Shown piece by piece: positions 47,310 to 53,085 of a stretch of 53,643 bases of DNA. The notes under the pieces are model-generated. The model was given only the letters and a program-made list of their open reading frames with translations, had not been told where the DNA came from and ran no database searches. The DNA comes from Sulfurimonas sp. GTDB lineage: Bacteria > Campylobacterota > Campylobacteria > Campylobacterales > Sulfurimonadaceae. Numbering within the stretch: position 1 is the first letter of the stretch; each line of letters starts with the position of its first letter. The position numbers and the translations under genes were made by a program. The stretch lies in contig JAMOQK010000026.1 in NCBI GenBank assembly GCA_027064045.1, forward strand, positions 1 through 53,643, given 5' to 3'.

Positions 47310-48380
47310 GTGAAAGTTCAAAAGCAGAAGTATAATATAGATGAGATTGTCCCCCTTATTACGGCGACAGAGATTCGTGATGCTTATACACAGGGACACT
47401 CTCAAAGAGTTGCTTATTATGCCTATCTCTTGACACATTCGCTTCAGTTTGATGAAAAGATATGCAAAAATGTCTATATAGCCGGTTTGTTGCATGATGT
47501 AGGTAAAATAGGCATTCCTGATAATATTCTCCTTAAACCTGGAGAGCTTGATGGTGAAGAGTTTGAACTTATCAAACTTCACAGTTCCATCAGTGGTAAA
47601 ATTGTCAAAACAATTCCACACTATAGTCATCTAAGTGAGATAGTATCTGCACACCATGAAAATTATGACGGAAGTGGCTATCCTTTGGGATTAAAAGCAC
47701 AAGAGATACCCATAGAAGCCAGACTTCTTACAATTTCAGATGTTTTTGATGCACTTACCACAAGAAGAGTTTATAGAGCCCCTATCCCTTTTGAAAAATC
47801 TTTGACAATTTTAACAGAGCTAGATGGAAAATTTGATCCTATTTTTTTGGATGCTTTTATAAAAATGATTCGCAAACATGGCATTGCAAAGGATGATATT
47901 GAGGCAATAAAATTTAATGAACTTGAAGAGTTGAGAAATAGTTTTTTCTTTTTAGATCCCCTTACAAAAGCTTTAAATCGAGATGGGCTTCTTGCGATTT
48001 TGCGTAGATCATCAGACTATGAATACAAAGTGGTCTTAACATTTATAAATATAAAACATTTTAAAGACTATAACAAACTTTATGGTTTAAAAAAAGGAGA
48101 CACTCTCCTCAATGAAATATCCAAAAAGTTTCAACATGCTTTTTCCTGTAAACACATAATGAATGAGCCAAAACATCATGATGCCTATTTCGCGCGTATT
48201 CATGCCGATAAATTTGCACTTTTGTATATAGGGCAGAGAGAAGATTTTATATCATACAAATTACAAGAGATTGTTAGTGAGTGTAAAAAAGAATTTGGAG
48301 TTGAAATTAGCTCAGATATTATTATTAAAAATAAAAAACTCTCTCACCATATAAAAAATGAATTAGGATATCTTTTATGA
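47310..48380 (+). CDS. HD-GYP c-di-GMP phosphodiesterase with degenerate GGDEF-like C-terminus
   Basis: This 356-aa protein has the HD-GYP set: GLLHDVGKIGIP (His62, Asp63), HHENYDGSGYP (115-125) and EARLLTISDVFDALTTRR. A partial GGDEF-like region (about 215-340) shows RIHADKFALLY where the signature should be, so it is not a cyclase. The HD-GYP part should break c-di-GMP. The start is GTG 47310; no strong ribosome site is seen. The last bases overlap the ATG of the next gene (ATGA at 48377-48380). It is the first of a four-gene operon. Confidence 0.88.
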   Translation: MKVQKQKYNIDEIVPLITATEIRDAYTQGHSQRVAYYAYLLTHSLQFDEKICKNVYIAGLLHDVGKIGIPDNILLKPGELDGEEFELIKLHSSISGKIVKTIPHYSHLSEIVSAHHENYDGSGYPLGLKAQEIPIEARLLTISDVFDALTTRRVYRAPIPFEKSLTILTELDGKFDPIFLDAFIKMIRKHGIAKDDIEAIKFNELEELRNSFFFLDPLTKALNRDGLLAILRRSSDYEYKVVLTFINIKHFKDYNKLYGLKKGDTLLNEISKKFQHAFSCKHIMNEPKHHDAYFARIHADKFALLYIGQREDFISYKLQEIVSECKKEFGVEISSDIIIKNKKLSHHIKNELGYLL

Positions 48381-49345
48381 AAATTATTGAAGAGTTTTCT
48401 ATTAAGCAAAGGGCTGATATTATCTATGTAAAAAGAACATTGCAGAGTCATTTTTGTGAGGAAAAATTTAAAGATAAAAGTTTTTTTCTCTTGGCCTTTA
48501 TGGAACTTGCAACAAATCTTATCAAACATACACAGGGTGGCAAAGTATTGCTTTTGGAGTCTGGCGGATACTATATGCTCGGTGTTGCAGATTATGGAGA
48601 TGGAATAAAGAGCGTGGCACACTCTTTACAAAGAGGTTATACCACCGCAGAAAATTCACTCGGACTTGGACTCTATCAGCTTAGTATCAATGGTCTTTAT
48701 GATTTTGAGATATTTTCTACACAGAAAAAGAACTTTCATGGTACGGTTATACTACTAAAACCAAAAGAGTTGCAAGAGAGTATTATCTGTTTTTCAAAAC
48801 CTTATATTGATGAAGATAATAATGGTGATTTTTACGCAAAAAAAGGAAAGTTTTTACTTTTTGGAGATGCAGCAGGTCACAATAAGAAATCACATAAAAC
48901 AGCTAAACTAATAGAAAAAAAGTTTTACTCCTCACAACTCTCTTGTATAATGGTTGACAGATTTTTTGAGCAAATTCATCAGGAACTACATGAAAAAAAG
49001 ATGCGAGGTGCTGTTTTTGTAGTTGCAGAAATTATAAAAAATCATATCTCTTTGTGTGGTGTAGGTGATTTGAATGTATGGATAAAAACACAAAATCACT
49101 TAGTATTCAAAACATTAAAAAGTGGTATAATCGGAGAAGTGTTTTCAAGTGTTGAAAAATTTCATTATGAACTCAAGGATGGAGTGTTTTGCATCGTAAC
49201 AACCGATGGTATGCAGACTCAAAAAATGGAATATTTCAAAAGTGAGATGATGGGTAATTATTCGGCGTATTTTATGGCATTTGTAATGTGGCATTTTGCA
49301 ACATCGCAATTTGATGATAGTTCTATTGTTGTTATTAAAAATTAA
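48377..49345 (+). CDS. Fusion of an RsbT-like kinase domain and an RsbX/SpoIIE-like phosphatase
   Basis: This 322-aa protein has an N-terminal GHKL ATPase of the RsbT/RsbW type: N-box FMELATNLIKH (Asn47), G1 DYGDGI (72-77) and G2 SLGLGLY (94-100). From about 150, a PP2C-like domain shows FGDAAGHNKKSHKTA and VTTDGM, the metal-binding aspartate motifs of RsbX/SpoIIE. RsbT phosphorylates STAS proteins and RsbX removes the phosphate; here both are in one chain. The substrate is probably the STAS protein encoded next. It is translationally coupled to the HD-GYP gene. Confidence 0.82.
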   Translation: MKIIEEFSIKQRADIIYVKRTLQSHFCEEKFKDKSFFLLAFMELATNLIKHTQGGKVLLLESGGYYMLGVADYGDGIKSVAHSLQRGYTTAENSLGLGLYQLSINGLYDFEIFSTQKKNFHGTVILLKPKELQESIICFSKPYIDEDNNGDFYAKKGKFLLFGDAAGHNKKSHKTAKLIEKKFYSSQLSCIMVDRFFEQIHQELHEKKMRGAVFVVAEIIKNHISLCGVGDLNVWIKTQNHLVFKTLKSGIIGEVFSSVEKFHYELKDGVFCIVTTDGMQTQKMEYFKSEMMGNYSAYFMAFVMWHFATSQFDDSSIVVIKN

Positions 49346-49360
49346 AAAAAGGAAAAGAAG

Positions 49361-50158
49361 ATGAGTAGAGAGTTTTGTAGTGCATTAAAAGATATTGTTA
49401 CAAACCAGAGTGAGGAGTTAATTCATTATTGGCTTGAGTATTTTGATGATGAACAAAAAGATGAAGCGTATCGTTATTATGATGATTTTTTAGGATTTTT
49501 TGAAGAGTGTCTGGATGTTGAACTGGATATAAAAAGTGACGAAGTACATGCAATGCTTCTCTTTTTAACAAAACTGCAAGAGACCATAGGAATAGATAAT
49601 TTTTTTCATTTTAAAGATTCTATGTATAGTTGTTATATCAAGTTTCCACTTTTAAAGGCTATGGATCAAGCTTCATTGTTTTCATTGGAAAATGTCTCTG
49701 TCCTGACAGCTTTTTTTGAAAGCCTGACAGCTTCTTTAATACTTAAAGAGCATCATAAAAACAGTGCGTCAAAAGAACAGTCAAGTTATGAATTAGAACA
49801 AAGAGAAGCACCGTTAAGTGAGTTATGGGATGGTGTTTTTATGGTTAGTATTGTGGGAACGCTTGACTCTGACAGGGTTTTAAAAATTATTGACAAGGTA
49901 TTAGACTATTTAGAAGTCAAAGAGAGCAGTTATGTTGTTATTGATATTGGTGCTATTTTTGACATAAACTCAGAAGTAACCAATCAGATTATGAAGCTAA
50001 ACAGTGCTGTCCGTTTTATGGGAGCAACACCAATGCTTACAGGTATTACCAAAAACATAGCAAAAAGTTTGACACATCTTAATATTTCATTGGGTGAGAT
50101 TAAAACTTTTCCTAGCACAAAAACGGCATTAAAAACTATATTGGATCTGAAAAATTGA
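49361..50158 (+). CDS. RsbR-type protein with C-terminal STAS domain
   Basis: This 265-aa protein has an N-terminal helical part (about 1-140, like the RsbR/RsbRD sensory domain). A C-terminal STAS domain from about 150 contains VSIVGTLDSDRV, then VVIDIGAIFDINSEV and FMGATPMLTGI. In RsbR the conserved DxTG has a phosphorylated threonine; here DIGAI replaces it, so that site is missing. The second threonine, in LTGITKNIAKS, is kept. It is preceded by AAAAAAGGAAAAG and followed by the GGDEF gene with a TTGA overlap. It is a likely partner of the RsbT-RsbX fusion. Confidence 0.8.
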   Translation: MSREFCSALKDIVTNQSEELIHYWLEYFDDEQKDEAYRYYDDFLGFFEECLDVELDIKSDEVHAMLLFLTKLQETIGIDNFFHFKDSMYSCYIKFPLLKAMDQASLFSLENVSVLTAFFESLTASLILKEHHKNSASKEQSSYELEQREAPLSELWDGVFMVSIVGTLDSDRVLKIIDKVLDYLEVKESSYVVIDIGAIFDINSEVTNQIMKLNSAVRFMGATPMLTGITKNIAKSLTHLNISLGEIKTFPSTKTALKTILDLKN

Positions 50159-50934
50159 TAAAAATGCTCTGTATTTATGATGTATATATAGTGATAGATA
50201 TCGAACAAATGGTTATTACGAATGCCTATTTAAAAGAACCTTTTAATGGTATGCAGATTCGATCACTTGATGATTTATCATATTTTTTAGAAATATTTTT
50301 TGATAAAGGTTCATGCCCTTTTGCAAGGGAGTTTGAGCATAGAGGAAAATGCTACTTCTTTATGTCACATACATTTAATAATATTGTTATTTTAACTATT
50401 CAAAATATTGACAAAATTAAAAATATTTTACTTGATAAAAAGGAGATACTTTTTGATGGTTTGACAAAATGCTATCTTAAAAAAGAGCTAGAACTCTTTT
50501 TAGAACAGGCATTAGAGAATTTTGTGCGTTATAAAAAAGAGAAGTTTTCTATTTTAATGTTTGATATTGATTTTTTTAAAAAAGTCAATGATACCTATGG
50601 ACATCTTGCTGGAGATTTCATCTTGAAAGAGCTTGCATCATTGGTAAAAAGTTCACTAAGAAAGTCAGATATCTGTGGACGATTTGGTGGGGAAGAGTTT
50701 TTAATACTTCTTCCAAACACAAATGTAAGCGGTGCCTTAAAATTGGCCACGAAACTAAATAAACTCGTAAAAGAACATGCTTTTATTTATAATGAGACAA
50801 ACATTTCTATAACTATCAGCTTAGGCATAACATCGGTAAGTTTTAGTGATTCATACCACTCTATAGTGCAAAGATGTGATGAAACACTTTATAAAGCAAA
50901 GGAAAATGGACGAGACAGAATAGAATATACATAA
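50155..50934 (+). CDS. Diguanylate cyclase (GGDEF)
   Basis: This 259-aa protein has an unrecognised N-terminal domain of about 95 residues with two cysteines, then a GGDEF domain from about 100 to 259. FDIDFFKKVNDTYGHLAGD and RFGGEEFLILLPN carry the metal and nucleotide residues. GGEEF is the active form, so c-di-GMP synthesis is expected. There is no membrane helix. The start is TTG 50155, overlapping the TGA of the STAS gene, so its translation probably depends on the gene before it. Confidence 0.88.
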   Translation: MIKMLCIYDVYIVIDIEQMVITNAYLKEPFNGMQIRSLDDLSYFLEIFFDKGSCPFAREFEHRGKCYFFMSHTFNNIVILTIQNIDKIKNILLDKKEILFDGLTKCYLKKELELFLEQALENFVRYKKEKFSILMFDIDFFKKVNDTYGHLAGDFILKELASLVKSSLRKSDICGRFGGEEFLILLPNTNVSGALKLATKLNKLVKEHAFIYNETNISITISLGITSVSFSDSYHSIVQRCDETLYKAKENGRDRIEYT

Positions 50935-51253: not shown

Positions 51254-51847
51254 TTGGCAATTATAGTTGACAAAGAACAAAAGAAAAGAGACATTGCACT
51301 TGGAACGAAACAGTTGATTTTAAATGATGGAATTAACAATATAACTATCTCTCAAATAGCAAAAGCAGCAAATATCGGCAAAGGTACAGTCTATGAATAC
51401 TTTAAAAACAAAGATGAAATTGTTTTTGAATTAGTTGAGATTTTGATGCAAGAGCATAATAAGCAAAAAGAAGCAAGACTTAACAAACTTACATCAACCA
51501 GAGAGAAAGTTAAAAGTTTTTTTAGTTTCTTCTATGTTGATGAAGATAAAGAGTTGCGTGAAATATATAAACAATTTACCGCTATTGCACTTAGTAGCAT
51601 AAATGAAGATATGCTTAACTTTCAAACGGAATGTTATATTCTATATGAAAAATGGATGCAAAATATTATAGATGAAGGTATAAAAAATAATGAATTAAAG
51701 CCTAGAGCAAAAAATCTTATTATGGGAATTTTTGCTTTTACTCAGGGGGTATTTATTATGAGTGTTACAACAAATGCTATAAAAAATTTACAACAAAAAA
51801 TAGATACTCAGATAGATATACTATTTGATTTAATGGAGAAAAAATAA
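51254..51847 (+). CDS. TetR-family transcriptional regulator
   Basis: This 197-aa protein has a TetR helix-turn-helix at about 27-50 (TISQIAKAANIGKGTVYEYF) and a helical ligand-binding half. The start is TTG 51254, fixed by GGAGG (51243-51247) six bases before it. It heads an efflux-type operon (TolC, HlyD-like adaptor), with its stop overlapping the tolC-like ATG by one base. Repression of this operon, relieved by a transported compound, is inferred from the layout and the operator upstream. Confidence 0.88.
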   Translation: MAIIVDKEQKKRDIALGTKQLILNDGINNITISQIAKAANIGKGTVYEYFKNKDEIVFELVEILMQEHNKQKEARLNKLTSTREKVKSFFSFFYVDEDKELREIYKQFTAIALSSINEDMLNFQTECYILYEKWMQNIIDEGIKNNELKPRAKNLIMGIFAFTQGVFIMSVTTNAIKNLQQKIDTQIDILFDLMEKK

Positions 51848-53085
51848 TGAAAAAACTACTACTACTTGGTATTATACCAGCTCTTTTGCTTAGTGATGAT
51901 TTACACTCACTTTTAGAGTTTGCAAAACAAAATAACAACCTTATGAATGCTTCAAAAATCTCAGCTCATGCAAAAGAAAAAGAGCTTGAGAGTGCAAAAA
52001 ACAACTACTACCCTACTTTAGATGTGAGTGGTTTTTATAAGAAAGATGACGATGCAAGTCCATTTCAGCCTGGAACTGTGTATGGAGCAAATGCAAAAAT
52101 TGCAGTTGATTTATATGACGGTGGGAAAAAATCCTATACAAAAAAACAAAAGACAAATGAACATCAGTCAGCTTTATATAGTTCCAAAGATACACAAAAA
52201 TCAATTTTACTCACCATTGCACAAGATTATTTCAACTTAAAAAGTCTTAAATCTTCTCTTAAAGCAAGAGTAGAAGCTGCCCAAGCAGTAAAAGCACAGC
52301 TTGAAAGAATGCAACATTTTTATGAAGCTGAACTTGCAACAAGTGATGATGTTGATAGACTTCAGTCTGCATATGACAGCAATATTTATGCAATTGAATC
52401 TATAAAATTTCAAATCAAAGCACTAAAAAAATCTTTAGAGATAAAAGTTGGTAAAAAAGTACCTTCCCTAGGAAACTCTACATTTCAAAAAATATTACAA
52501 CAAAACAAAAAGGAACTTGACAGTATCCAAGCTCTTAAATACAATAAAACAGCCCTTTTAAATTTAAGTCAAACAGTTGATAGTTATTACTATCCAACAG
52601 TTCACATAGAAGATACATACTCTGTTTACAAGTATAAAGATGAACCAACTATGGCAAATCGTCCTATACCACTTCTCGCTAATCAAAACGAGATTATGGC
52701 TACTGTTGGTTTAAGACTTTTTGACTTTGGAACGCTTAAAGAGCAAAAAGAAGCTATAAAACTTCAAGCAGATGCACTAAATGAGCAAATCATCTATAAA
52801 TCAAAAGAGCAACAGATGCAACTTGAACTCTCCCTTGATAGAATTCATACAGCAAACCTTAATATAAAAAGTTCAAAAAGTGCATTAAAAGCGGCAAAAA
52901 GTGCATTAAAAACAATCACTGAAAAATACAGTGCAGGAATTGTAGATAATGTCGTCTATCTTGATGCACTCTCATCTAAAACACAAGCACAAGCAGTGTA
53001 CAAAAAAGCACTTAATGATTTAGAGATCGCTTATGCAATTTATTACTATTACAGCAACAAAAACATAGAGGAATTTTTAGAATGA
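51847..53085 (+). CDS. TolC-family outer-membrane efflux protein
   Basis: This 412-aa protein has a signal peptide (KKLLLLGIIPALLLS). Two repeats of long alpha-helical hairpins with short strands are typical of TolC/OEP proteins, including KNNYYPTLDVSGFY and YYYPTVHIEDTYSVY. Near the end is YSAGIVDNVVYLDALSSKTQAQ, a conserved OEP repeat. It forms the outer-membrane channel of an RND or ABC efflux pump. It overlaps the adaptor gene by four bases (ATGA). Confidence 0.92.
   Translation: MKKLLLLGIIPALLLSDDLHSLLEFAKQNNNLMNASKISAHAKEKELESAKNNYYPTLDVSGFYKKDDDASPFQPGTVYGANAKIAVDLYDGGKKSYTKKQKTNEHQSALYSSKDTQKSILLTIAQDYFNLKSLKSSLKARVEAAQAVKAQLERMQHFYEAELATSDDVDRLQSAYDSNIYAIESIKFQIKALKKSLEIKVGKKVPSLGNSTFQKILQQNKKELDSIQALKYNKTALLNLSQTVDSYYYPTVHIEDTYSVYKYKDEPTMANRPIPLLANQNEIMATVGLRLFDFGTLKEQKEAIKLQADALNEQIIYKSKEQQMQLELSLDRIHTANLNIKSSKSALKAAKSALKTITEKYSAGIVDNVVYLDALSSKTQAQAVYKKALNDLEIAYAIYYYYSNKNIEEFLE

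What the first reader, a model, noticed from the sequence alone, without database searches (positions are those of the whole stretch)
47310..50934. A four-gene operon joining partner switching with c-di-GMP turnover
The order is HD-GYP phosphodiesterase, RsbT-RsbX fusion, RsbR-type STAS protein and GGDEF cyclase. Genes 1-2 overlap by ATGA and genes 3-4 by TTGA; genes 2-3 are 15 bases apart. Kinase and phosphatase in one chain could set the phosphorylation of the STAS protein, which in turn could control the cyclase, the phosphodiesterase or both. No anti-sigma factor or sigma factor is nearby, so the output is probably c-di-GMP rather than transcription. I know of partner switches that act on a cyclase (HsbR-HsbA-HsbD in Pseudomonas), but not of this gene set.
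Basis: partly seen in the sequence, partly recalled or inferred. Interest (0 to 1): 0.75.

Follow-up and report, generated by a model that had tools for sequence, protein, structure and literature searches.

The report
Partner-switch operon controlling c-di-GMP enzymes
Four co-transcribed genes in a Sulfurimonas-like bacterium join a protein-phosphorylation switch to the enzymes that make and break the signal c-di-GMP; the block is real and conserved in scattered relatives, and is a new variant of a circuit already known from a few other bacteria.

Summary
Window 47310-50934 encodes, with ATGA, 15-bp and TTGA junctions, an HD-GYP protein, a HATPase-PP2C fusion, an RsbR-like STAS protein and a GGEEF diguanylate cyclase. 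Ten other loci (Sulfurimonas, Nitratiruptor, Nautiliaceae) carry the complete order down to 30-40% protein identity; the 4-bp overlap of genes 1 and 2 is kept in 13 of 13 loci. Catalytic residues of kinase and phosphatase are invariant in 18 of 18. Both residues aligned with the phosphosites of Listeria RsbR stay hydroxylated in 19 of 19 STAS proteins. The kinase/phosphatase-STAS pair is the constant core: four Nautiliaceae loci lack the HD-GYP gene, two others lack the downstream cyclase. Two 98-99% complete module genomes show no RsbS-like protein. Partner switches on cyclases were already known (SiaABCD, HsbRAD, BgrUVWR, Moorella MtRST-X/MtG), as were rsbRSTX clusters next to c-di-GMP enzymes. 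What is new is a bifunctional kinase-phosphatase with one RsbR-like STAS, no RsbS, and both opposing c-di-GMP enzymes in one operon. Whether the STAS protein or the kinase domain touches the enzymes is not settled by sequence.

The parts
47310..48380 (+). gene 1: HD-GYP phosphodiesterase with C-terminal degenerate GGDEF domain (356 aa, GTG start)
   Evidence: ORF; HD_5, GGDEF; profile vs 4mcw/5z7c HD-GYP structures; metal ligands
47370..47840 (+). HD-GYP domain (aa 21-177); metal-ligand positions H30, H62, D63, H91, H115, H116, D144 conserved except in L056
47952..48284 (+). degenerate GGDEF domain (aa 215-325), motif xADKF/xGDKF in place of GG(D/E)EF; protein ends in a conserved GYLL tail
48377..49345 (+). 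gene 2: kinase-phosphatase fusion (322 aa), RsbT-like HATPase then RsbX/SpoIIE-like PP2C
48377..48766 (+). HATPase (GHKL) kinase domain, aa 1-130; E43, N47, D72, G74, G76, G96, G98 invariant in 18 of 18
48773..49342 (+). PP2C phosphatase domain, aa 133-322; D151, D164, G167, H168, D277, G278, D313, D314 invariant in 18 of 18
49361..50158 (+). gene 3: RsbR-like STAS protein (265 aa) with helical N-terminal domain and long linker helix
49802..50155 (+). STAS domain (aa 148-265)
49868..49870 (+). Ser170 codon, aligned with Thr175 of Listeria RsbR; Ser in 19 of 19
49970..49972 (+). Ser204 codon, aligned with Thr209 of Listeria RsbR; Ser or Thr in 19 of 19
50155..50934 (+). gene 4: diguanylate cyclase (259 aa, TTG start overlapping the gene 3 stop)
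50659..50670 (+). RxxD product-inhibition (I-site) motif, aa 169-172, invariant in 14 of 14
50686..50700 (+). GGEEF active-site motif, aa 178-182, invariant in 14 of 14

Best explanation
A self-contained partner switch that sets c-di-GMP. Gene 3 senses a cytoplasmic signal through its N-terminal domain. Gene 2 phosphorylates its STAS domain (Ser204, perhaps Ser170) with the kinase half and removes the phosphate with the PP2C half. The phosphorylation state decides whether the STAS protein docks on the co-encoded c-di-GMP enzymes, the cyclase of gene 4 and the HD-GYP protein of gene 1 (plausibly through its dead GGDEF domain), so that one switch can move synthesis and breakdown together. Shown by sequence: gene content, coupling, intact catalytic residues, conserved phosphoacceptor positions, conserved linkage. 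Inferred: that gene 2 acts on gene 3, that gene 3 rather than gene 2 is the effector, the sign of control, and the signal. I put about 0.8 on the wider statement that this is a phospho-STAS switch with a c-di-GMP output, and 0.45 on the specific version with the STAS protein as effector.
For: Complete four-gene order in the window and ten other loci, with the same 4-bp gene 1-2 overlap in 13 of 13 loci that have both genes. Flanking genes of the window (poly-A polymerase-like, TetR, TolC) gave no match in any fetched module locus, so the block is kept although its surroundings change. Gene 1 full-length homologues (E below 1e-80, about 350 aa) in 135 genus genomes are all in module-bearing genomes. 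The gene 4 GGDEF is 50-60% identical to module cyclases against at most about 47% to any other GGDEF in four genomes. Both Listeria RsbR phosphosite positions are hydroxylated in 19 of 19, with Ser/Thr swaps at 204; in Listeria, T209 matters for signalling (PMC8942246). STAS-as-effector precedents: SiaC on SiaD, HsbA on HsbD, BgrV on BgrR (PMC8457831, PMC6482189, PMC7647112). HsbR also carries kinase and phosphatase in one chain.
Against: No interaction or activity is tested. The closest relatives by sequence are stressosome proteins (RsbR; the Moorella and Bacillus RsbX phosphatases), where the kinase rather than the STAS protein leaves to act on the target. The gene 4 N-terminal domain is poorly conserved and gives no hint of a docking site. 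In L056 gene 1 has lost two metal-ligand positions, so an active phosphodiesterase is not always part of the module.
Confidence: 0.45

Rival explanations
1. Stressosome logic: unphosphorylated gene 3 holds gene 2; on a signal gene 2 phosphorylates it and is freed, and its kinase domain binds and changes the cyclase (and/or the HD-GYP protein), while the fused PP2C resets the STAS protein.
For: Gene 3 is RsbR-like over its full length and the gene 2 phosphatase half matches the Moorella PP2C 3zt9 and RsbX. In Moorella the RsbT-like MtT binds and attenuates the cyclase MtG (PMC7647112; PMC4976288, describes it as phosphorylation).
Against: No RsbS, the subunit that sequesters RsbT in stressosomes, was found in the module or elsewhere in two near-complete module genomes. 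Gene 4 shows no RsbU_N domain, the RsbT-docking domain modelled on MtG (PMC12143880). The kinase is tied to the phosphatase.
Confidence: 0.35
2. The switch acts mainly on an unlinked target such as an anti-sigma factor (HsbA acts on FlgM), and the c-di-GMP enzymes are secondary.
For: HsbA binds both FlgM and HsbD (PMC6482189). No search for unlinked targets was made.
Against: All module variants keep at least one c-di-GMP enzyme within the operon, and genes 1 and 4 are dedicated lineages that travel with the switch. No sigma or anti-sigma factor among the neighbouring ORFs scanned.
Confidence: 0.1
3. Reverse direction: c-di-GMP or GTP level, read by the dead GGDEF domain of gene 1, is an input that sets the phosphorylation of gene 3.
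For: The gene 1 GGDEF domain is degenerate yet retained in 13 of 13, as in nucleotide-sensing GGDEF domains known from other proteins (general knowledge).
Against: Four Nautiliaceae-type loci run the switch without gene 1. Gene 4 keeps an intact GGEEF motif and I-site in every module examined.
Confidence: 0.08
4. Chance neighbours sharing a transcript without functional coupling.
For: GGDEF and HD-GYP genes are abundant in these genomes (20 to 56 GGDEF matches per genome).
Against: Order and overlaps are conserved while flanks change and proteins diverge to 30-40% identity; genes 1 and 4 are dedicated lineages.
Confidence: 0.02

Closest known systems
Moorella thermoacetica stressosome MtR-MtS-MtT-MtX with diguanylate cyclase MtG (Quin et al. 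2012)
   Same: RsbR-type STAS sensor, RsbT-like kinase, RsbX-like phosphatase and a cyclase target; the gene 2 PP2C half has the Moorella structure 3zt9 as its top Foldseek hit
   Different: Kinase and phosphatase fused here; no RsbS; no RsbU_N or GAF on the cyclase; an HD-GYP protein is added
rsbRSTX clusters with globin-coupled RsbR and downstream GGDEF/EAL/HDc proteins (Heinz et al. 2022, PMC9237108)
   Same: Partner-switch genes directly beside c-di-GMP enzymes, proposed to control c-di-GMP
   Different: Those encode separate RsbS, RsbT and RsbX; here one STAS and one fusion
SiaABCD of Pseudomonas aeruginosa
   Same: Four-gene operon in which kinase, phosphatase and a STAS-like protein control an adjacent GGDEF cyclase
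   Different: Kinase and phosphatase are separate proteins, SiaC is a DUF1987 protein, and there is no phosphodiesterase
HsbR-HsbA-HsbD of Pseudomonas aeruginosa
   Same: One chain with kinase and PP2C domains acting on a STAS protein that binds a cyclase
   Different: HsbR is receiver-PP2C-kinase, HsbA is not an RsbR-type protein, and HsbA also acts on FlgM
BgrU/BgrW/BgrV/BgrR of Sinorhizobium meliloti
   Same: Phosphatase/kinase couple sets a STAS protein that controls a cyclase
   Different: Separate kinase and phosphatase; no HD-GYP protein or RsbR-type sensor described in the papers read

Membership tests
RsbRST(X) stressosome | RsbR-type protein: N-terminal sensor domain, linker helix and STAS | tested here: met
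   Profile match to Listeria RsbR over residues 7-262; top structural match 7b0u over 258 residues, rmsd 10.3 so domain orientation differs
RsbRST(X) stressosome | Conserved phosphoacceptor positions (Listeria T175, T209) | tested here: met
   S170 in 19/19, S/T204 in 19/19
RsbRST(X) stressosome | Separate RsbS subunit | tested here: not met
   None in the modules; STAS census of module genomes G143 (99% complete) and G078 (98%) shows only gene 3 and larger STAS-containing frames. A diverged RsbS below E 1e-3 could be missed
RsbRST(X) stressosome | Free-standing RsbT kinase | tested here: not met
   The kinase domain is fused to PP2C in 18/18 aligned loci
RsbRST(X) stressosome | RsbX-type PP2C phosphatase | tested here: met
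   catalytic residues 18/18
RsbRST(X) stressosome | Megadalton icosahedral assembly | not testable with these tools
   Needs purified complex and electron microscopy
SiaABCD | SiaC-type DUF1987 protein | tested here: not met
   Gene 3 hits STAS PF01740; no DUF1987 hit at E up to 1
SiaABCD | Adjacent SiaD-like GGDEF cyclase | tested here: inconclusive
   Gene 4 matches NF038266 SiaD at 151 bits, below its cut-off of 290; the stalk binding motif was not tested
HsbRAD | Receiver-PP2C-HATPase regulator | tested here: not met
   Gene 2 is HATPase-PP2C without a receiver domain
Moorella MtG-type target | RsbU_N dimerisation domain on the cyclase | tested here: not met
   No RsbU_N hit in gene 4 at E up to 1; a diverged domain is not excluded
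HD-GYP phosphodiesterase | Metal-ligand H/D set and GYP motif | tested here: met
   12 of 13 gene 1 proteins keep all positions; L056 has H91Y and H116R
active diguanylate cyclase | GG(D/E)EF motif | tested here: met
   GGEEF and RxxD invariant in 14/14 gene 4 proteins

The most novel reading that the evidence does not exclude
A minimal, RsbS-less stressosome relative in which one bifunctional kinase-phosphatase and one RsbR-like STAS protein reciprocally gate two opposing enzymes (cyclase on, HD-GYP off, or the reverse) from a single operon, with the enzyme set exchangeable between lineages (cyclase only, HD-GYP only, or both).
Probability: 0.3. Interest if true: 0.7.

Novelty: new variant of a known kind. 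Interest (0 to 1): 0.5.

Why it matters
Partner switches that act on cyclases are known in a few bacteria, but I know of none shown to steer both synthesis and breakdown of c-di-GMP, and I found no paper on stressosome proteins in Campylobacterota. The natural variants (switch plus cyclase, switch plus HD-GYP, switch plus both) give a ready comparative system for asking which partner carries the signal, and whether RsbR-type proteins can work without RsbS.

Tried and rejected
The search for related loci with the single gene 2 sequence found nothing in genome contigs; the gene 3 alignment found 18 loci. Plasmid search with gene 2 gave only two distant matches at 23% identity. Phmmer with the gene 2 sequence alone found no meaningful solved structure; the profile did. 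VIA-align on the gene 2 model tested only the PP2C half, so the kinase half rests on sequence motifs and the BceS/SpoIIAB profile matches. Promoter and terminator scan was at shuffle level. Literature searches for an RsbT-RsbX fusion with c-di-GMP and for stressosomes in Epsilonproteobacteria found nothing relevant. The distance correlation among the four proteins (r 0.90-0.97) is not used as proof of interaction, because shared species history gives the same.
Full report
OBSERVATION. Domain scans give HD-GYP plus a second, unreported GGDEF domain in gene 1, HATPase and SpoIIE-type PP2C below cut-off in gene 2, STAS in gene 3, and a strong GGDEF in gene 4. The weak gene 2 calls were firmed up by a ten-sequence profile, which finds B. 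subtilis RsbX, the Moorella PP2C 3zt9 and the HATPase of BceS in the PDB, and by an AlphaFold model (mean pLDDT 87) whose residues 133-322 superpose on 3zt9 (Z 18.3, rmsd 2.7, 182 residues) and RsbX (Z 17.8). Gene 3 as a profile matches Listeria RsbR from residue 7 to 262. Its model is a helical N-domain, a long helix 109-148 and a STAS domain, with RsbR of the Listeria stressosome as top structural match over 258 residues; the rmsd of 10 shows that domain orientation differs.

LINKAGE. In genomes of the same genus, gene 2 relatives at E below 1e-30 occur in 11 of 135 genomes including the window's own. The genus is most likely Sulfurimonas: fetched contigs have the same lengths as Sulfurimonas MAG records. 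Across the phylum the gene 3 profile finds only 6 of 397 sampled genomes, so the module is rare and patchy. A gene 3 profile search of named genome contigs adds loci in Nitratiruptor, Nautiliaceae, Sulfuricurvum and other Campylobacterales. The complete order is present in the window and in L004, L026, L027, L029, L030, L031, L032, L033, L051 and L056; L049 is complete except that gene 1 is cut by the contig end. L028, L034 and L060 fit but are truncated. Genes 1 and 2 overlap by exactly 4 bp in all 13 loci that have both with readable ends. The window's flanking genes gave no match in these loci: the block stays together while its surroundings change.

VARIANTS. Four Nautiliaceae-type loci (L040, L052, L053, L057) have genes 2-3-4 without gene 1. 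Two loci (L055, L059) have genes 1-2-3 without gene 4; L059 has another GGDEF gene ending at the start of gene 1, and both have a convergent PAS/HD-GYP gene next door. The kinase/phosphatase-STAS pair is therefore the constant core, and the c-di-GMP enzymes are the exchangeable part. In L056 gene 1 has lost two metal-ligand positions (H91Y, H116R).

DEDICATED ENZYMES. In 135 genus genomes, full-length gene 1 homologues (about 350 aa, 41-72% identity, E below 1e-80) occur only in module-bearing genomes; other HD-GYP proteins reach at most 1e-61 and sit mostly in longer frames. In four genomes the module cyclases share 50-60% identity in the GGDEF domain with the window's, against at most about 47% for any other GGDEF domain, including in a different family.

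CATALYTIC AND PHOSPHORYLATION SITES. Gene 2: E43, N47, D72-G74-G76, G96 and G98 of the GHKL fold and D151, D164, G167, H168, D277, G278, D313, D314 of the PP2C fold are invariant in 18 of 18. Gene 3: S170 aligns with T175 and S204 with T209 of Listeria RsbR, without gaps; residue 170 is Ser in 19 of 19 and residue 204 is Ser (16) or Thr (3). In Listeria both threonines are phosphorylated by RsbT, and T209 matters for signalling (PMC8942246). Gene 4 keeps GGEEF and the RxxD I-site in 14 of 14; gene 1 keeps the HD-GYP ligands in 12 of 13, while its GGDEF motif is replaced by xADKF-like sequences throughout. Two cysteines of the gene 3 N-domain are nearly invariant (C50 19/19, C91 18/19), a possible clue to the input, untested.

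NO RsbS. A STAS census of module-bearing genomes finds, in G143 (99% complete) and G078 (98%), only gene 3 and larger STAS-containing frames of 382-562 aa. The switch seems to run on one RsbR-type STAS protein. Other module genomes have short STAS frames of 93-116 aa elsewhere, whose identity was not pursued.

MECHANISM. Well supported by sequence and established family knowledge: a kinase-phosphatase chain and a STAS protein with conserved phosphoacceptor positions, made with a cyclase and an HD-GYP protein. Not shown: direction and partner. Precedents split. STAS-like proteins act on cyclases in SiaABCD, HsbRAD and BgrUVWR (PMC8457831, PMC6482189, PMC7647112); the kinase acts on the cyclase in Moorella (PMC7647112; PMC4976288). 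Gene 3 and the phosphatase half resemble the stressosome side by sequence. The missing RsbS, the fused phosphatase (as in HsbR) and the absence of RsbU_N on the cyclase resemble the other side. I favour the STAS protein as effector only slightly (0.45 against 0.35).

NOVELTY. Partner switches on c-di-GMP enzymes are known, and rsbRSTX clusters beside GGDEF, EAL or HDc proteins have been described (PMC9237108). The combination here (fusion enzyme, lone RsbR-like STAS, both opposing enzymes, modular loss of either) I did not find in the papers searched. The library holds open-licence papers only. I rate it a new variant of a known kind.

Noticed in passing
L035:4253-7284 and L005:3625-7883: A second, more distant switch type in the same genus: single-domain STAS (141 aa), HATPase-PP2C fusion, then a c-di-GMP or kinase output. 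A similar N-terminal segment (ALHQYL..INIPYGI) is fused to GGDEF-EAL in L035 and to a histidine kinase in L005, suggesting a swapped target domain.
   Followed up: partly
L029, L030, L033, L059 (directly upstream of gene 1): An extra GGDEF gene precedes gene 1 on the same strand in several modules; in L059 it ends at the gene 1 start codon.
   Followed up: partly
L056:5990-7051: The gene 1 copy has H91Y and H116R at metal-ligand positions, probably a dead phosphodiesterase kept in a complete four-gene module.
   Followed up: partly
window 49361-50158 (residues 50 and 91): Two nearly invariant cysteines in the sensor domain of the STAS protein, a possible redox or metal input.
   Followed up: no
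L049 (JALWLM010000292.1): A module on a 3.6-kb low-coverage contig labelled Crocinitomicaceae (Bacteroidota); more likely a binning error than transfer.
   Followed up: no
window 51254-53085: A TetR-type regulator followed by a TolC-like outer-membrane protein, probably the start of an efflux operon that runs towards the window end.
   Followed up: no
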